DNA of 7,002 nucleotides, from positions 1-7,002 of the forward strand of contig JACPQI010000097.1 of NCBI GenBank assembly GCA_016190545.1. The letters run 5' to 3'. Shown one piece after another: positions 786 through 5,727 of this stretch. The notes under the pieces were generated by a model, which did not search any database, was not told where the DNA came from, and saw nothing but the letters and a program-made list of their open reading frames with translations. The DNA is from Chloroflexota bacterium (GTDB taxonomy: Bacteria; Chloroflexota; Dehalococcoidia; SHYB01; JACPQI01). Both the position numbers and the translations under genes were made by a program. How positions within the stretch are numbered: position 1 is the stretch's first letter; each line of letters begins with the position of its first letter.

Positions 786-795
786 GCCCGTTGTC
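786..795 (+). repeat. Direct repeat, left copy (GCCCGTTGTC)
   Basis: The ten bases GCCCGTTGTC also occur in the same orientation at 3890-3899, beyond the right end of the element. This could be a target-site duplication, which would place the element at 796-3889. However, it overlaps the tip of the left inverted repeat and is longer than the 8 bp usual for IS1595-family insertions. Confidence 0.4.
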
Positions 796-828
796 AGCTT
801 TCGTGGCAGTTATCCCGATGACACACCA
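790..828 (+). repeat. Left terminal inverted repeat of the IS1595-like element
   Basis: This imperfect repeat matches 3828-3866 in reverse complement. The inner 10 bases TGACACACCA (819-828) are perfect. Further matching blocks are TGTCA near the tip (792-796), GGCA in the middle (806-809) and TTA (810-812). It starts six bases after the purA stop codon. Confidence 0.6.
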
Positions 829-845
829 TACATAGGAAAAATACC

Positions 846-1082
846 GTGGCGCTGAAACCTGATGCAAAGGAATGGGCAATCAGAGAGCAGATTGTGGAAG
901 ACCCTGTGAGTGGGTTGACAATACAATTCGCCGTTGCTCCAGACGGCACTTTCCGATTAAGGTTATTTGGGGGCTTCCCCTTCGGAAATCGAGAAATCAT
1001 CTTTGACAAGACAGGGGCAGAGGCGGGAGCCGGTGTTGCCCTTAGTCGCCTCTGTCCCCCATCTTGGCTTCGAGAAGTCTAG
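846..1082 (+). CDS. Small hypothetical protein (78 aa)
   Basis: I do not recognise this protein. It starts at GTG (846), with AGGA at 834-837 giving a normal 8-base spacing, and ends at TAG. The product looks like a real small cytoplasmic protein. An acidic and basic helix (residues 4-18) is followed by alternating hydrophobic strands (LTIQFAVAPDGTFRLRLFG, then REIIFDKTG) and a terminal CPPSWLREV. There is no signal peptide or membrane segment. It is the first gene inside the left end of the proposed element and converges on the GIY-YIG gene. The two stop codons share the bases CTAG at 1079-1082. I see no convincing -10 box between the left repeat and the start. It is probably a passenger gene of the element, function unknown. 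Confidence 0.6.
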   Translation: MALKPDAKEWAIREQIVEDPVSGLTIQFAVAPDGTFRLRLFGGFPFGNREIIFDKTGAEAGAGVALSRLCPPSWLREV

Positions 1083-1393
1083 CCTACGCGCTCATTACAA
1101 GAGGGTAGACGACCGAAGTGCGCCCCTTTGTACTCTTCGAGAAGTGCTACTTCTCTAGACCGAGCCGCTTCGGTGCTCTCGCGCCTATAGTATGCGGCGC
1201 TTTGTGTGCATCGGCCTTCATCTCCCCTCAAATGAGACTGAAGCCGACTTCGGATAGTGACTCCAACCCCATCGGCACGCCCTATGTAAATCAAAGCCTG
1301 GTTGCTGTCGTACAGAGCGTACACGCCATGAGCATCAGGAGAACCATCAACGTTTTGTTGGTTGAATGCGTACATGTCACCAGTGATAGGCAT
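1079..1393 (-). CDS. GIY-YIG domain protein (small, stand-alone)
   Basis: GIY-YIG domains are small metal-dependent nuclease folds found in homing endonucleases, UvrC, Slx4-partner nucleases and many stand-alone proteins. In this 104-aa product the signature is GVY (residues 23-25) and YIG (36-38). Arginines 48 and 50 and His54 lie in the following helix, Glu86 (LLEEYKG) is in the position of the metal-binding acid, and Asn100 is near the end. These are the expected catalytic elements, so the protein may be active. It has no DNA-binding extension, unlike homing endonucleases. I chose the ATG at 1393 because GGGAG (1406-1402) sits 8 bases upstream. An in-frame TTG at 1408 would overlap that ribosome site. 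An intrinsic terminator (1456-1431) lies just upstream, so this gene needs its own promoter or read-through. The substrate is unknown. Confidence 0.8.
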   Translation of the reverse strand: MPITGDMYAFNQQNVDGSPDAHGVYALYDSNQALIYIGRADGVGVTIRSRLQSHLRGDEGRCTQSAAYYRRESTEAARSREVALLEEYKGAHFGRLPSCNERVG

Positions 1394-1430
1394 GTGTTCT
1401 ACTCCCAATAGTTTTTGAAGTGGAAAAGAT

Positions 1431-1460
1431 GGCAGGCTCCCAGGCGGAAGCCTGCCTATG
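1431..1460 (-). terminator. Intrinsic terminator, minus strand
   Basis: An 8-bp perfect stem is formed by GGCAGGCT (1431-1438) and AGCCTGCC (1449-1456) around a 10-base loop. Read on the minus strand it is followed by ATCTTTTCC, a short T-run. It would end transcripts coming from the DUF5343 gene and the hairpin region, upstream of the GIY-YIG gene. The T-run is modest, so partial read-through is possible. Confidence 0.6.
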
Positions 1461-1468
1461 ATATGATA

Positions 1469-1626
1469 AGAGGTGCGAACAACGGGCCGGTTCTAGCGGC
1501 CCCTTGTTCCACCAAGGGACAAGATGCGAGTAGCATCGCGTCCAAGTCCTTTCGGCGCTGGAGAGTTTTGGTCCGGCAAGACTATGAGGCTCTCCAGCGC
1601 CCTTGTTATCCCGTACAGGCACCTCT
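1469..1626. other. Multi-hairpin region, possible structured RNA (strand unsure)
   Basis: About 158 bases are closed by an 8-bp perfect pair AGAGGTGC (1469-1476) with GCACCTCT (1619-1626), extendable by ACGGG (1482-1486) with CCCGT (1610-1614). Inside are consecutive hairpins: GGGCCG/CGGCCC (1484-1489, 1497-1502), CCCTTG/CAAGGG (1501-1506, 1513-1518), GATGC/GCATC (1523-1527, 1533-1537) and a 12-bp perfect stem at 1554-1565 with 1590-1601. The 24-base loop of that stem holds a further TGGTC/GACTA pair. Some pairs are mutually exclusive, suggesting alternative folds. Minus-strand reading puts it directly behind the DUF5343 stop (1627-1625) and ahead of the terminator at 1456-1431, as a 3' UTR or processed RNA. 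Plus-strand reading has a -10-like TATGAT (1457-1462) but no good -35. I recognise no known RNA family. A DNA-level role (recombination site, small inverted-repeat element) is also possible. Confidence 0.45.
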
Positions 1627-2371
1627 ATGCCTGAGAAACGGCTTGGGGTGTCTCTTGTGGTTGTTCGGCGTTTGTCACTTCAAAAAGAAGGTCAACGGCT
1701 GCCGTCATGGTGTCCACCCACTTCTTTCGCTTGTCCGATGTCCATTTCCCATTTCGCGGCAGTTGTTGAATGACCGCCGAGATCAGCCTGTAATCAGGGG
1801 CAGCGTCCGGTTCATTCTCAGTCCGAGATGGCTCTTCTTTGTCGGATTGCGAGGTTGTGACCCTAGGGATGGGCTTACTAGGTTTAGGACGTGGTGTTGG
1901 TCGTTGGGCAGCCACGCGGCGCTTCCCTGTCCTAGGTGGGATTATTTGTGCTTCTTCACAGAGACCTAAGAAAAGGCGGATCATCTTGTTTCTCTGATTG
2001 GCGGGATCATAGCGGCGAAAGGCATCCGCAATCGCTATATCCCCATCTTGGGCGGGATCAACAATGGAGAAGACGGGGAGATATGCATTCCGGACGATTT
2101 CCGCTAGTGTTTGGGGGTACTCCTCTGTAGAAGCACGCCTCAGACGCTCAAAGACTTCGGTGCGATTGCCGCCTTCATCGATTAGCCCTAAGAATCTCAA
2201 CGCTTTCAAGCAAGGACTTGTCATAGTATTCGAGACCCCAATTTGCTCCAAAGCGTCGAGAGTCAAAGGCTCTGGAAGTCCTCTTTCTCTATACCGCTTG
2301 ATCACATCAAGGACTGCCTTTGCGGGAGCGTACGCTGCAAAATTCTCCCCTATCGGTCTCCCTGTGGTCAT
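1625..2371 (-). CDS. DUF5343-like protein with C-terminal helical tail
   Basis: This 248-aa cytoplasmic protein has three parts. Residues about 8-145 resemble the DUF5343 family, whose role is unknown: an N-terminal helix, a winged-helix-like segment (LTLDALEQIGVSNTMTSP followed by LKALRFLGLIDEGG), then a helical region ending CEEAQIIPP. Residues about 146-195 are a Pro/Lys/Arg/Glu-rich linker. The last 50 residues hold a helical module (LISAVIQQLP, then W and KKWVDTMTAAVDLLFEV) of a type seen at the ends of other such proteins. I prefer the ATG at 2371 because GGAGG (2381-2377) precedes it by 5 bases. The in-frame ATG at 2383 has no comparable site. A strong promoter lies at 2449-2421. The fold suggests a DNA-binding or regulatory protein, but this is inference. 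The family assignment is from remembered sequence pattern, not a search. Confidence 0.72.
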   Translation of the reverse strand: MTTGRPIGENFAAYAPAKAVLDVIKRYRERGLPEPLTLDALEQIGVSNTMTSPCLKALRFLGLIDEGGNRTEVFERLRRASTEEYPQTLAEIVRNAYLPVFSIVDPAQDGDIAIADAFRRYDPANQRNKMIRLFLGLCEEAQIIPPRTGKRRVAAQRPTPRPKPSKPIPRVTTSQSDKEEPSRTENEPDAAPDYRLISAVIQQLPRNGKWTSDKRKKWVDTMTAAVDLLFEVTNAEQPQETPQAVSQA

Positions 2372-2420
2372 CTTGCCCTCCATCCGGCAACATCACGCGC
2401 CGAGAGTTCATGACATCAAA

Positions 2421-2449
2421 ATTATAATGCCACCAGCGCTATATTGCAA
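2421..2449 (-). promoter_or_regulatory. Sigma-70-type promoter of the DUF5343 gene
   Basis: On the minus strand, TTGCAA (2449-2444) and a perfect TATAAT (2426-2421) are separated by exactly 17 bases. Transcription would begin near 2414 and give a leader of about 40 bases before the start at 2371. The -10 lies within ATTATAAT, which also reads TATAAT on the plus strand (2423-2428), but no matching plus-strand -35 is visible. Confidence 0.72.
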
Positions 2450-2539
2450 GTCCGTCACGAACCAATTTGGCGAAGCATTTGCAATCAATATCCAAACCGG
2501 CCATTCTTCTTACTGAAACCTCGTCAAAGGGGGCAAGAA

Positions 2540-2728
2540 ATGCAACCCAAATTAGTTGGAATCAAGGGCGGATGGGCCGCTGTCGGAAAGGGCTGGGCTG
2601 TCTTCGGAGAAACCAAAGAGCAAGCGTTGCAGAACTTTGTTGCTGCGGAATCACGCCATGCTACAATAGCAATGAGGGATAAGGAAGCCACTGATGGGCG
2701 GGATACAAAGAAAGAAACGGCGGCATGA
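2540..2728 (+). CDS. Small hypothetical protein (62 aa), HicB-like pattern
   Basis: The chosen ATG at 2540 has a run of five G (2529-2533) six bases upstream. An earlier in-frame ATG at 2444 lacks a ribosome site and would add an atypical N-terminus. The first 35 residues read as two short strands and a helix: IKGGWAAVGKGWAVFGETKEQALQNFVAA. The GWAV.GET.EQAL.NF arrangement is reminiscent of the beta-beta-alpha half of HicB-type antitoxins, but the protein is shorter and no HicA is present, so this is only a resemblance. The rest is a charged, probably disordered tail. Its last 35 bases overlap the start of the next gene in another frame, indicating translational coupling. It lies inside the proposed element. 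Confidence 0.6.
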   Translation: MQPKLVGIKGGWAAVGKGWAVFGETKEQALQNFVAAESRHATIAMRDKEATDGRDTKKETAA

Positions 2729-2906
2729 TGATACGACGGTCTCGTTGGCCCCTCTTTCCTTCGAGCAAGCTATCGCCGAGCTAGCCAAGGCCCCTAAGCG
2801 TGAGGGTTCTCGGCCAAAGGCTTCTCGCAAAACCACGTCACCCGCCCGCGAGTCTGGCCCATCAAAGCCGCAAAGCGAGTCTCATCCGAAATCTTCCGGC
2901 GATTGA
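2694..2906 (+). CDS. Small basic hypothetical protein (70 aa), overlaps transposase 3' end
   Basis: The ATG at 2694 follows AGGA (2682-2685) by 8 bases and overlaps the preceding gene by 35 bases. The product starts with a basic patch (RKKRRHDD), then has the segment TTVSLAPLSFEQAIAELAKAPK, a pattern I associate with small uncharacterised proteins in which a short strand and one helix are followed by a Lys/Pro-rich tail. From about residue 34 the reading frame runs antisense over the last 113 bases of the transposase gene and encodes a Ser/Pro/Lys/Arg-rich tail. That tail may be genuine, or the frame may simply run on into the transposase gene. The function is unknown. It is probably cotranscribed with the 62-aa gene. 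Confidence 0.5.
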   Translation: MGGIQRKKRRHDDTTVSLAPLSFEQAIAELAKAPKREGSRPKASRKTTSPARESGPSKPQSESHPKSSGD

Positions 2907-3780
2907 ACCTGAACTCGAACTCGCTCAGGTATTCCGGCAAATACTGCTGGTCAACGTGGTGGAACGTCCCCACGAGGCCACGTTTTAGCAGCGACCAGTA
3001 GTTGTCGATGCCCTGGGTGTGGATGTCCCCATCGACATACGAAATCTCATGGTCGATGATTCCATGCGGTAGCTTGTGGTGTATGAGTCTGTACGCAGGA
3101 TGCCCATCCGTCATCAGTCGGGCGTTCCCTTGGTCAATGTAGCCCATAAGCAAGGGGCGCAACTCTCTAGCCGTAGCCTTCGGTACAACCATCGTGCGGA
3201 CCGAACCGCCGCGCTCCAGCATCCCGAACACGGTTGTCTTGCCCTCGCGCCAGTCCTTGTGATTCTTGGGGCGCAAGCCCATCTGTTTTTCGTCTTTTAC
3301 CTGTTCGTGATAGATGGGATGGCCGCGCTTCCGCTTGGGGTAGATGTAGGTTTCATCGGCCTCGACAGTACCGGCCAATATGGGGAGCGCCTTGTCCTTC
3401 ATCGCTTCCCTGATCCGATGGCACATGAACCATGCGCTCTTGTAGGCGATGTGCAGTTGGCGGTGAATCTGGTGGGCGCTCATGCCCTTCTTGGAAGCGC
3501 ACATGAGGTATATCGCCGCAAACCACTTGCTCAGGGGGATATGGCTGTCCTCAAAGATGGTGCCTACCGTGGCCGTGTACTGGCGCTTGCACGCCTTACA
3601 GCGGTAGAGCGTGGTGACGGCGTTCTTGGTCTGGCTGTGGCGGGTGAGCCGGTAATGCTCCGTGACCCCACACTTGGGACACTTGGGGCCGTCCGGCCAC
3701 CGCATCTTCTCTAGGTAGGAGCGGCATTCCTCATCACTCCATTTGAGAACTTCCTGGAAGGTGACTCGTGGTGTAGTCAT
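2794..3780 (-). CDS. IS1595-family (ISXO2-like) transposase, DDNK type
   Basis: This enzyme cuts and joins the ends of its element by RNase H-fold chemistry. The 328-aa protein looks full length. Residues 14-30 are the N-terminal helix, and residues 34-64 form a zinc ribbon (C34-x2-C37 and C61-x2-C64). A helical region reads GTIFEDSHIPLSKWFAAIYLM, and the ISXO2-type catalytic domain follows. Catalytic residues are D142 (VEADETY), D225 (MTDGHPAY), N260 (GIDNYWSLLKRG) and K266, matching the Asn-containing DDNK branch of the family rather than DDE. The end, RVTWFCEKPLAENPHA, also looks native. The ATG at 3780 follows AGGAG (3794-3790) by 9 bases and has a good promoter in the right inverted repeat. 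No frameshift or internal stop is present, so the enzyme is potentially active. Its 3' end overlaps a small plus-strand gene by 113 bases. Confidence 0.95.
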   Translation of the reverse strand: MTTPRVTFQEVLKWSDEECRSYLEKMRWPDGPKCPKCGVTEHYRLTRHSQTKNAVTTLYRCKACKRQYTATVGTIFEDSHIPLSKWFAAIYLMCASKKGMSAHQIHRQLHIAYKSAWFMCHRIREAMKDKALPILAGTVEADETYIYPKRKRGHPIYHEQVKDEKQMGLRPKNHKDWREGKTTVFGMLERGGSVRTMVVPKATARELRPLLMGYIDQGNARLMTDGHPAYRLIHHKLPHGIIDHEISYVDGDIHTQGIDNYWSLLKRGLVGTFHHVDQQYLPEYLSEFEFRFNRRKISDETRFAALMGQTRGRVTWFCEKPLAENPHA

Positions 3781-3809
3781 AGCTATGAACTCCTATCTGA
3801 CTAGATAGA

Positions 3810-3838
3810 AGCATAGCACATTTGTCTTGGTGTGTCAA
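3810..3838 (-). promoter_or_regulatory. Transposase promoter inside the right inverted repeat
   Basis: On the minus strand, a perfect TTGACA (3838-3833) and TATGCT (3815-3810) are separated by 17 bases. The start of transcription would fall near 3803, about 23 bases before the transposase ATG. The -35 box is part of the conserved repeat core, so transposase bound there could repress its own gene. Confidence 0.65.
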
Positions 3839-3866
3839 GTACCTAATTGCCGCTTTCGTTGACACC
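3828..3866 (-). repeat. Right terminal inverted repeat of the IS1595-like element
   Basis: This is the partner of 790-828. The inner core TGGTGTGTCA is at 3828-3837 and the tip-proximal GTTGACACC at 3858-3866. Two TTGACA hexamers are embedded in it, one on each strand, and both can serve as -35 boxes (see the promoters at 3810-3838 and 3859-3887). Confidence 0.6.
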
Positions 3867-3887
3867 CACCTAACGCCGTGTTATAGT
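3859..3887 (+). promoter_or_regulatory. Outward promoter toward the solute-binding protein gene
   Basis: A perfect TTGACA (3859-3864) and TATAGT (3882-3887) are separated by exactly 17 bases. Transcription would start near 3894 and give a leader of about 80 bases before the lipoprotein gene at 3976. The -35 lies in the tip of the element's right inverted repeat. The -10 lies just outside the tip if the element ends at 3866, or inside it if the edge is 3889. Confidence 0.65.
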
Positions 3888-3889
3888 AC

Positions 3890-3899
3890 GCCCGTTGTC
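3890..3899 (+). repeat. Direct repeat, right copy (GCCCGTTGTC)
   Basis: This exact copy of 786-795 lies 24 bp beyond the right tip defined by the inverted repeat. It is either one half of a target duplication or a chance match. Confidence 0.4.
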
Positions 3900-3975: not shown

Positions 3976-5727
3976 ATGCACAGGCTGACACTTATTGGTA
4001 TTGGCAGCGCCATTATCGTGGGGCTCGCGGCTGCGGCGTGCGGCGGCGGAGAGACGGCCACGCCCACTGCCCGCCCGGCGGCGACTGCTACGACAGCGCC
4101 AGCCAGACCCACCGCGACCGCTGTCGGCACGACCGTGGCCCGGCCGTCCCCGACCCCCGCCCCCACAGTAGCCCAAGCTACCGCCACGCCAGCAGCACGG
4201 CCCACCAGCGCTCCTGCAGCGCCCGCCGGCAGGCTGCGCATGGCTATCCCCACCTTTGACAACGAGCAGGTCCGGCCCTCCCACGGCAAGGCTGCCACCC
4301 TCTCTGGTTATATGGGCGGTCTCTACGACTGGCTGGTATGGGCCGGGACAGACGGCTCCTTGGCCCCCGGCATTGCCACCCGCTGGGACTTTGCCAGCGA
4401 TGCCTTGAGCTGGACCTACACCGTGCGCCAGGGCATGCGTTTCCACAACGGCGACCCGCTTACCGCCGACGACGTGAAGTTCAGCATCGAGAAACTCTTG
4501 CAAGACAATTCCGACGCGCAGCACGCCACCTTCTCCGCCTCCTGGGTCGCCCAGATCCAGTCCGTGGACATTGTTTCTCCCACCGCCGTCCGCGTGAACC
4601 TGAAGAAGCCGTGGCCGTTGATGGCCATGGACGCCAGCGTGCTGACCGGCACAGAAGGGGCGGTGGCTCCCAAAGCCTATATGCAGCAGGTGGGCGATAA
4701 TGGGTTTGACGAGAAACCCATCGGCAGTGGCCCCTGGCGCTTCCTCCGCCATGACCTCGGCGTCCGCTTCCTGTTCGAAGCGGTCCCCACCGCCCACGCC
4801 TACCGGCAGACGCCCAAGTTCAAGGAGCTGGAAATCTTAGCCGTGCCTGAGGAAAGCACCCGCGTAGCCATGCTACGGACCAAGGCCGTAGACCTGGCGG
4901 CGTTGGGATCCTTCGACACCGCTGCGGGGCTGATGAGCAACCCCGAGTTCTCCGTTCTGGCCATCCAAGGCGGCACCATAGGCAGCATGCTTCTGTGGGG
5001 CGCGGACGACGCCAGAATCAAAGACCTTCCCCTGGCGAAGAAGCCGGTCCGCGAAGCCCTGGCCCTGGCCCTCAACGTCCCCGAGATAGTGGAGACTATC
5101 TTCCGAGGCCTGGCCAAGGTAGCGAACGACAGCTTTATCACCCCCAGTGGCATGGGCTACGATCCTTCCTGGAAGCCCCAGGAGTTCAACCCCAACCGTG
5201 CCAAGGAGCTGCTGACACAGGCGGGCTATGCGCGGGGCTTCTCCTTCCGCGTCTACAGCTTCTCCACAGCCGCAGTGCCCTGGGCGCCACGTGTCGCAGA
5301 GGCTTCCGCCGGATACTGGAGCCAGATTGGCCTGCGACCGGAGATCATCCCGGTCGATTCTGTGGCAGGGTTCTACCGAGCCAGACCTCAGGGCATAGAC
5401 TTGATGGGGCAGGCCAGCCCGTTGTGGGTCACCGCCTCGCCCTCTCCCCTTGGCCCCATGCGGTCACAGGTGCATTCCAAGGGCACCCTCCTCCTATTGC
5501 AACGCCCGGAGATGGACGCTTTGCTCGACCAGGCGGTTGCGGAGCTTGACGAGCAGAAGCGCATTCAGCTCCTTCGCGGGATATCCGAGATGGCGCGTTC
5601 CGAGTACGTGGTCATTCCCATCGTCGTCTCGCCGGCCCTCGTCGGCGCAGGCAGCAACATCGCCGGGTGGCAGGCCATTCCCGCCGCCGGTGTGAGCCTG
5701 GCCCTGGAGACGGTGACGCCCAAGTAG
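3976..5727 (+). CDS. ABC transporter family-5 solute-binding lipoprotein
   Basis: This is a peptide/nickel/opine-type extracellular binding protein that would deliver a ligand to an ABC importer. The 583-aa product begins with a short basic start and a hydrophobic segment, then GLAAAAC with Cys22 as the probable lipidated residue (the -3 position is Ala, so the lipobox is loose). Residues 23-85 are an unusually long Thr/Pro/Ala-rich linker that would hold the domain away from the membrane. The SBP_bac_5 domain follows, with family signatures: LAPGIATRWDFASDALSWTY, the RQGMRFHNGDPLTADDVKFSIE block, and IGSGPWRF. Later segments include KKPVREALALALN and NPNRAKELLTQAGY. The ATG at 3976 is chosen because GGGGAGGA (3963-3970) precedes it by 5 bases. 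A TTG at 3949 would spoil the signal peptide. No permease or ATPase genes adjoin, and a terminator follows, so it is an orphan here. The ligand cannot be told. Confidence 0.93.
   Translation: MHRLTLIGIGSAIIVGLAAAACGGGETATPTARPAATATTAPARPTATAVGTTVARPSPTPAPTVAQATATPAARPTSAPAAPAGRLRMAIPTFDNEQVRPSHGKAATLSGYMGGLYDWLVWAGTDGSLAPGIATRWDFASDALSWTYTVRQGMRFHNGDPLTADDVKFSIEKLLQDNSDAQHATFSASWVAQIQSVDIVSPTAVRVNLKKPWPLMAMDASVLTGTEGAVAPKAYMQQVGDNGFDEKPIGSGPWRFLRHDLGVRFLFEAVPTAHAYRQTPKFKELEILAVPEESTRVAMLRTKAVDLAALGSFDTAAGLMSNPEFSVLAIQGGTIGSMLLWGADDARIKDLPLAKKPVREALALALNVPEIVETIFRGLAKVANDSFITPSGMGYDPSWKPQEFNPNRAKELLTQAGYARGFSFRVYSFSTAAVPWAPRVAEASAGYWSQIGLRPEIIPVDSVAGFYRARPQGIDLMGQASPLWVTASPSPLGPMRSQVHSKGTLLLLQRPEMDALLDQAVAELDEQKRIQLLRGISEMARSEYVVIPIVVSPALVGAGSNIAGWQAIPAAGVSLALETVTPK

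What the first reader, a model, noticed from the sequence alone, without database searches (positions are those of the whole stretch)
790..3866. IS1595-family transposon carrying five passenger genes next to purA
The sequence shows a 10-bp perfect inverted repeat (819-828 / 3828-3837) extending imperfectly outward to about 39 bp. It brackets a lower-GC block with a complete DDNK transposase, a GIY-YIG protein, a DUF5343 protein and three small unknown proteins. IS1595-family passengers are established, but I do not know this particular set. It may be a self-contained module (regulator or effector plus nuclease) that moves together.
Basis: partly seen in the sequence, partly recalled or inferred. 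Interest (0 to 1): 0.72.

Follow-up and report, generated by a model that had tools for sequence, protein, structure and literature searches.

The report
Transposon carrying two small gene pairs
A 3-kb jumping DNA element with exact ends and its insertion scar intact sits between two bacterial genes; besides its mover gene it carries a tiny companion gene that most of its relatives also have and two pairs of possible defence genes, so this family may serve as a small vehicle for bacterial immunity genes.

Summary
The transposon is real and its ends are now exact: 805-3851 (3,047 bp), terminal inverted repeats GGCARTTA...TGACACACCA, perfect 8-bp target duplication GCTTTCGT at 797-804 and 3852-3859. 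Of 86 transposase loci examined (85 distinct), 45 including the window could be delimited by repeats plus a perfect 8-bp duplication; these 45 carry 850-3,242 bp beyond the transposase match. Cargo differs even between close relatives: PemK, DUF3800, AbiU, RelA/SpoT, GmrSD, PIN. The window's five other genes are not one module. One (2694-2906) is a small companion gene; related small genes are found in 42 of 45 elements and in none of the matched flanks. The other four form two pairs, each also found elsewhere: DUF5343 plus a divergent 62-aa protein, GIY-YIG plus a convergent 78-aa protein. The third catalytic position is Q, not N. IS1595 elements with passengers are a known kind; I saw neither the companion gene nor this conflict-gene cargo in the papers reached, but ISfinder and the founding paper were out of reach. 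Cargo function is inferred.

The parts
797..804 (+). Target-site duplication, left copy (GCTTTCGT), 12 bp after the purA stop
   Evidence: 8 of 8; only two places in the window
805..828 (+). Terminal inverted repeat, distal end (GGCAGTTATCCCGATGACACACCA)
   Evidence: 17 of 24 against the other end
846..1082 (+). 78-aa protein (GTG start), convergent partner of the GIY-YIG gene (4-bp overlap)
   Evidence: tblastn 57% in L144 (1.6e-25) and 49% in L154 (3.7e-12), both beside a GIY-YIG gene; convergent layout; no Pfam family
1079..1393 (-). Single-domain GIY-YIG protein, 104 aa (ATG at 1393-1391; longest frame starts at 1408)
   Evidence: PF01541 1.1e-5, DUF7508 1.7e-5; 103 relatives, up to 66%; PADLOC PDC-S14 1.1e-5 (weak); start codon
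1431..1456 (-). Terminator-like hairpin between the DUF5343 and GIY-YIG genes
   Evidence: 11 pairs, 8 G-C; a consensus match only (5 found, 3.0 expected)
1625..2371 (-). DUF5343 protein, 248 aa (ATG at 2371-2369; longest frame starts at 2383): winged helix, more helices, C-terminal helical pair
   Evidence: PF17278 2.2e-19; 211 relatives; PADLOC PDC-M34A 1.8e-11; AlphaFold2 mean pLDDT 84; start codon
2540..2728 (+). 62-aa protein, divergent partner of the DUF5343 gene (overlaps the next gene by 35 bp)
   Evidence: 58% in L146 (8e-12) and 55% in L148 (6e-11), each divergent from a DUF5343 gene (L148 layout); no Pfam family
2694..2906 (+). Small companion gene (70 aa, SLAPLSFEQAI core, basic tail), antisense to the transposase 3' end
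   Evidence: related small genes in 42 of 45 elements, none in matched flanks; purifying selection on the core; no Pfam family
2794..3780 (-). IS1595-family transposase (328 aa), zinc ribbon plus ISXO2-like domain, D-D-Q-K
   Evidence: PF12762 1.3e-32, PF12760 4.4e-17; NF033547 1.6e-60
3810..3838 (-). Promoter-like TTGACA-17-TATGCT for the transposase, its -35 box inside the inverted repeat
   Evidence: 10 of 12, TG before the second hexamer; a consensus match only
3828..3851 (-). Terminal inverted repeat, transposase end (GGCAATTAGGTACTTGACACACCA)
3852..3859 (+). Target-site duplication, right copy (GCTTTCGT)
3859..3887 (+). Promoter-like TTGACA-17-TATAGT ahead of the lipoprotein gene; its first base is the last base of the duplication
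   Evidence: 11 of 12; a consensus match only

Best explanation
It is a complete IS1595-family transposon with passenger genes, inserted between purA and a substrate-binding lipoprotein gene. Shown by sequence: exact ends, an 8-bp target duplication, an intact transposase, and the same bracketed architecture in 44 other elements. The core is the transposase plus a small companion protein (short helical segment, basic tail) that most delimited relatives carry whatever their cargo; I infer that it helps or controls transposition. The cargo is two independent two-gene units, DUF5343 with a 62-aa partner and GIY-YIG with a 78-aa partner, each found elsewhere as a pair. I infer that they act as conflict modules of defence or toxin-antitoxin type: a nuclease or DNA-binding effector with a small partner that restrains or senses. 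The insertion site TGTCA-N8-TGACA resembles the TTGACA inside the element's own repeat, so I infer that the transposase of this sub-clade prefers targets that look like its ends. Here that left the -35 box of the downstream promoter in place.
For: Ends and duplication. Generality: of 86 transposase loci (85 distinct), 45 have repeats of at least 16 of 24 plus a perfect 8-bp duplication and were accepted (best score with the downstream DNA shuffled, one shuffle per locus: 15); all 45 have at least 850 bp beyond the transposase match. Companion gene: profiles trained partly on the elements hit 40 of 45 elements and 0 of 45 flanks (one flank, L111, short); a profile from database proteins only hits 25 of 45 and 0 of 45; a third variant adds L018 and L061 and hits no flank; the core in 8 elements differs 208/122/415 times at codon positions 1/2/3 of 672 each. 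Cargo of relatives: AbiU in L003 and L014 (best 2.7e-123), RelA/SpoT-type PDC-S33 in L020 and L034, GmrSD/NsnA in L007, PemK in L009 and L103, DUF3800 in 5 and PIN in 2 of 103 cargo ORFs. Window cargo: DUF5343 hits PADLOC PDC-M34A, 1.8e-11. Pairs. Target preference in 10 elements: GTCA half-site score 47 of 80, null mean 20, 0 of 20,000 draws; motif-free information content also 0 of 5,000.
Against: No function is tested for any cargo gene or for the companion gene. The defence enrichment over flanking genes is modest: 7 identified and up to 9 of 103 cargo ORFs against 3-4 of 103 flank ORFs at E <= 1e-8 in PADLOC, and the cargo ORFs are shorter (mean 180 against 266 aa). The companion gene was not found in L007, L016 and L030, is weak in L053 (0.0018), and is too diverged across clades for one alignment (21% mean column identity), so common descent of its variants is not proved. 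GTCA was chosen as the motif after seeing the sites, and all 7 full GTCA half-sites of 90 lie in the ten elements, none in the other 70 half-sites. A 33%-identical transposase lies about 0.4 kb from a DUF5343 relative in L155, but no ends were found there (best 12 of 24). No empty site could be examined.
Confidence: 0.8

Rival explanations
1. The small gene at 2694-2906 is not a transposition factor but part of the cargo, for example a general antitoxin-like or regulatory partner that travels with conflict genes.
For: It sits at the border of transposase and cargo. Its 72 database relatives (36-85 aa) have no genomic context here. Its basic tail and short helix would also suit an antitoxin or a nucleic-acid-binding regulator. 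No cargo-free element of this clade was seen that could separate the two.
Against: It is present with very different cargo (PemK in L009 and L103, DUF3800 in L101 and L110, AbiU in L003 and L014, RelA/SpoT in L020 and L034, the window's pairs) and not in flanks.
Confidence: 0.3
2. The two cargo pairs are not defence or toxin-antitoxin units but ordinary accessory genes (a DNA-binding regulator and a general GIY-YIG nuclease) carried by chance.
Against: Both pairs keep the same partner and orientation in other places. Cargo in sister elements includes known toxin and abortive-infection families. L010, a separate sister element, carries a distant DUF5343 relative (hhalign probability 93%).
Confidence: 0.3
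3. The block is a genomic island or a composite of separate insertions, and the transposase is a short IS inside it.
For: Cargo-free IS1595 elements exist in other subgroups (for example the 712-bp ISApl4; passages of PMC12561309).
Against: Repeats and duplication bracket the whole block exactly, and none of the 45 delimited elements ends within 849 bp of the transposase match.
Confidence: 0.03

Closest known systems
IS1595-family insertion sequences with passenger genes ('tIS'; MTnSag1/tISSag10, tISCpe8)
   Same: IS1595-family DDE transposase, terminal inverted repeats, target duplication, passenger genes inside the ends (passages of PMC5704250; usual 8-bp duplications and zinc finger, passages of PMC8101967)
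   Different: Those two are described as mobilizable elements, and tISCpe8 as a lincomycin-resistance element (a reference title); here the cargo is two conflict-type pairs, a small companion gene recurs in relatives, and the third catalytic position is Q
Tn7-like transposons carrying defence cargo (PMC8649781, passages including the abstract)
   Same: A transposon family as a vehicle for defence and toxin-antitoxin genes; cargo decoupled from the core
   Different: Unrelated, larger machinery with several core proteins (recalled); here one transposase and one small protein in elements of 1.8-4.2 kb
Cargo-free IS1595 elements such as ISApl4 (passages of PMC12561309)
   Same: Family, 8-bp duplication
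   Different: 712 bp, transposase only, ends GGGGCTGTACTAGA

Membership tests
IS1595 family | DDE_Tnp_IS1595 catalytic domain | tested here: met
   PF12762 1.3e-32; NF033547 transpos_IS1595 204.7 bits, cut-off 75
IS1595 family | N-terminal zinc-binding domain (all groups but IS1016, per passages of PMC8101967) | tested here: met
   PF12760 4.4e-17; four Cys conserved in 41 of 41 aligned transposases
IS1595 family | 8-bp target-site duplication (usual, per PMC8101967) | tested here: met
   GCTTTCGT twice
IS1595 family | Terminal inverted repeats | tested here: met
   17 of 24
IS1595 family | Catalytic set recalled as DDNK, DDEK, DDHK or DDER (from memory, no call) | tested here: inconclusive
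   Window has D, D, Q, K; third position Q in the window and 9 relatives, N in 29, gap in 2 of 41
IS1595 family | Match to a named ISfinder subgroup and its ends | not testable with these tools
   ISfinder not held; Siguier et al. 2009 not read (seen only as a reference)
IS with passenger genes (tIS) | Genes other than those for transposition inside the ends | tested here: met
   Four non-core genes between 805 and 3851; cargo differs between relatives with the same core. That they are not needed for transposition is inferred
Integrative mobilizable element (as MTnSag1) | Relaxase or other conjugation proteins | tested here: not met
   No such family among the element's proteins; an oriT was not looked for
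Type II toxin-antitoxin system (cargo pairs) | One toxic gene neutralised by its neighbour | not testable with these tools
   Needs an experiment; conserved two-gene layout only
PADLOC PDC-M34A (DUF5343) | Profile match | tested here: met
   1.8e-11, residues 17-172; PADLOC-DB lists known and candidate systems, and I take PDC to be a candidate (recalled)
BrxA-like or FokI-like DNA-binding fold (DUF5343) | Same fold over most of the domain | tested here: inconclusive

The most novel reading that the evidence does not exclude
A multi-phylum clade of IS1595-type transposons has a two-gene core: a transposase and a fast-evolving small protein with a short helix and a basic tail. The clade always carries cargo, largely toxin and anti-phage modules, and its sub-clades choose targets that mimic their own ends or another fixed motif. 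It would be the smallest dedicated vehicle for bacterial immunity genes, and the unnamed cargo (DUF5343 pair, GIY-YIG pair, many unknowns) would be a ready list of new defence systems.
Probability: 0.45. Interest if true: 0.78.

Novelty: new variant of a known kind. Interest (0 to 1): 0.6.

Why it matters
Many defence genes are found by guilt by association in large islands. Here the unit is 1.8-4.2 kb with base-exact borders, so whatever lies between the transposase and the far repeat is by definition what moves. That turns a collection of short transposons into a clean screen for new toxin and defence modules. The companion gene raises a directly testable question: does a short, diverged protein let this IS1595 clade carry cargo when cargo-free insertion sequences of the same family do not?

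Tried and rejected
One module of five genes: rejected. Short IS inside an island: rejected. Empty-site comparison: tried, no close relative held. Viral or plasmid origin of the cargo: DUF5343 alignment in viral contigs, 89 stretches matched a pattern, none confirmed; GIY-YIG alignment, 1 locus confirmed of 11 stretches; no DUF5343 match in plasmids; no GIY-YIG match in phages. Likeness of other cargo to DUF5343: supported for L010, not for L041, L058 or L053; likeness of an L026 protein to the GIY-YIG family not supported. A companion-gene regex was too strict (13 of 45 elements, 0 flanks) and was replaced by profiles. One search also gave a companion-profile hit inside the transposase frame of L054 (identical to L113), which I did not resolve.

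Rows dropped before counts. Of 86 loci (L054 and L113 are one sequence), 45 were accepted at 16 of 24 or more. L067 also scored 16 but was dropped by hand because its ends do not resemble the family repeat; L011, at 16, was kept because hand delimitation agrees. L028 (15) fell below the cut. L104 and L108 have repeats but no matching duplication, L100 and L102 are cut by contig ends, L107 has one repeat found. L050 and L051 share their duplication and may be one insertion; L024 and L026 have the low-complexity duplication of eight T or A. Of 112 mechanically picked cargo ORFs, 11 were dropped by eye as overlapping or spurious, one was shortened and 2 from L102, not among the 45, were added, giving the 103. 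The flank set is a random 103 of 244. PADLOC on the cargo showed 25 of 29 families, Pfam on the flanks 25 of 100. The profiles were partly trained on the elements; one search is the control without that, and there a profile trained on six acidobacterial elements hit 8 others and no flank.

Fold search of DUF5343: no significant Foldseek match, only middling Z. Literature: DUF5343 0 papers; IS1595 with passenger, tIS, toxin-antitoxin, target-site, defence, cargo or accessory-gene terms: listings only, those mostly irrelevant; passages of PMC7371123, PMC5704250, PMC12561309, PMC8101967 and PMC8649781. PADLOC candidate papers were only listed. The companion gene has no name to search by, so its absence from print rests on these listings.
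Full report
What is there. The window is a 7,002-bp sequence; its own proteins are listed on a contig of that length, and no whole genome is held for it. It reads: the end of purA (2-784), a transposon, a solute-binding lipoprotein gene (3949 or 3976 to 5727) and further genes. GC is 0.51-0.58 inside and 0.63-0.70 outside.

The ends. The closest transposases (L009 69%, L010 68%, L011 64%) have GGCAATTAG(A/G)TACTTGACACACC upstream of the gene and an inverted, imperfect copy 1.2-1.6 kb past its end. Aligning the window to them puts its ends at 805 and 3851, flanked by the identical octamer GCTTTCGT at 797-804 and 3852-3859. The same offset gives perfect 8-bp duplications in 10 of 12 hand-delimited elements; L104 and L108 fail.

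Automatic delimitation. Each of 86 transposase loci (window, L001-L071, L100-L113; L113 repeats L054) was searched for 24-base repeats joined to a perfect 8-bp duplication, up to 6.5 kb downstream. Forty-five were accepted at 16 of 24 or more, after L067 was dropped by hand. With the downstream DNA shuffled once per locus the best score was 15. The 45 are 1,779-4,223 bp long with 850-3,242 bp beyond the transposase match, median 1,783. Of three plasmid loci opened, two show the layout in named species, Roseomonas marmotae and Methylobacterium oryzae, with a PIN or VapC cargo gene and 8-bp duplications; the third, L160, gave no acceptable ends.

Transposase. Zinc-ribbon and ISXO2-like domains. 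In 41 aligned transposases (those of 280 aa or more among the 45) the first D is conserved in 41, the second in 40 with one gap, K in 38; the third position is N in 29, Q in 10 including the window, gap in 2. All ten Q-type elements have perfect duplications, so D-D-Q-K seems to work; this is inference.

The companion gene. The + strand frame 2694-2906 overlaps the transposase 3' end antisense. In the Chloroflexi-class loci plus L009-L011 and the window the profile finds it in 16 of 18 (L109 only with the first profile; L113 is a fragment); 14 are aligned. In 24 core codons, all but about five bases of them outside the window's transposase, differences among 8 elements fall 208/122/415 on codon positions 1/2/3, and dN is below dS in every pair where dS could be computed, though dS is often saturated. 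In several elements outside this clade (L015, L027, L041, L055, L058, L059) the small gene lies on the transposase strand, so an antisense effect cannot be what is conserved. Profiles find it in 40 of 45 elements and 0 of 45 matched flanks (the L111 flank is short); a profile from database proteins only finds 25 of 45 and 0 of 45; a third variant seeded from the plasmid copies adds L018 and L061 and no flank. L007, L016 and L030 remain without. No Pfam family fits (one hit of E 0.026 in 1 of 18). The variants share a short helical stretch, a proline and a basic tail but are too diverged to prove common descent.

Cargo of relatives. Among 103 cargo ORFs Pfam finds 22 families: DUF3800 in 5, AIPR 2, GmrSD 2, DUF6941 2, PIN 2, RelA/SpoT 2, PemK 2, and singles of ParB, SieB, Panacea, HipA-like, NYN, DUF4258, HNH, trypsin and others. 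A random 103 of 244 flanking ORFs match 100 families; the 25 shown are mostly metabolic, transport and signalling. PADLOC at E <= 1e-8 hits 7 identified cargo proteins (AbiU in L003 and L014, PDC-S33 in L020 and L034, NsnA in L007, a protease in L036, the window's DUF5343) and up to two more (HEC-09, PDC-M04A, one member each, not assigned), against 3-4 flank proteins. The defence reading is strong for single cases and only suggestive in count. PemK with DUF6941 is carried by both L009 and L103, and L010 has a distant DUF5343 relative, so some cargo types recur in separate elements.

Target choice. In 10 elements the four bases outside the duplication score 47 of 80 against GTCA (null mean 20, 0 of 20,000 draws); the motif was picked after seeing the sites, but information content without a motif is also higher than in all of 5,000 draws. 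Over all 45 elements CA at -2,-1 occurs in 20 of 90 half-sites (background 0.059, p 2e-7) and GTCA in 7 of 90, all 7 in the ten elements above. The window is the clearest case: TGTCA-GCTTTCGT-TGACA. The right TGACA belongs to the -35 box of a promoter-like site ahead of the lipoprotein gene (3859-3887, 11 of 12), and the element's own end carries TTGACA as the -35 box of a promoter-like site for the transposase (3838-3810). Target mimicry of the end is inference.

Verdict. A new member of a known kind (IS1595 elements with passengers) whose clade shows two features not seen in the papers I could reach: a recurrent small companion gene, and cargo that leans to toxin and anti-phage modules. Siguier et al. 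2009 and ISfinder were not available, so priority cannot be claimed.

Noticed in passing
window 3859-3887: The insertion abuts, and leaves intact, the -35 box of a strong promoter-like site ahead of the lipoprotein gene.
   Followed up: partly
L014, L025, L034 (also L003, one base different): In one alphaproteobacterial-type group of elements the target duplication is itself the same octamer, CCCGCAAG (either strand), in three elements, at least two of them with different cargo, which points to sequence-specific targeting.
   Followed up: partly
window 786-795 and 3890-3899: GCCCGTTGTC occurs on both sides of the element, outside the target duplication (read); chance or an older flanking repeat.
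   Followed up: no
L015, L026, L158, L159: A recurring cargo set: a protein of about 266-309 aa, a PIN/VapC-like protein and a small protein (read from frames and plasmid annotation).
   Followed up: partly
L101, element 6320-9059 in transposase orientation: A NYN protein appears split over two frames beside a DUF3800 gene.
   Followed up: no
L104 and L105: A 356-aa cargo gene of L105 (no Pfam match; DUF3800-like only by eye) is split in two frames in L104, whose ends lack a matching duplication.
   Followed up: no
L155 4180-5785: A DUF5343 relative lies about 0.4 kb from a distant (33%) IS1595-type transposase; no ends found.
   Followed up: partly
L139-L143: The GIY-YIG profile also hits inside frames of about 840 aa in five genomes of the class, a different architecture.
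   Followed up: no
L144 4678-5764: Next to the stray GIY-YIG pair lie two frames that look by eye like a RelE/HigB-type toxin and a helix-turn-helix antitoxin.
   Followed up: no
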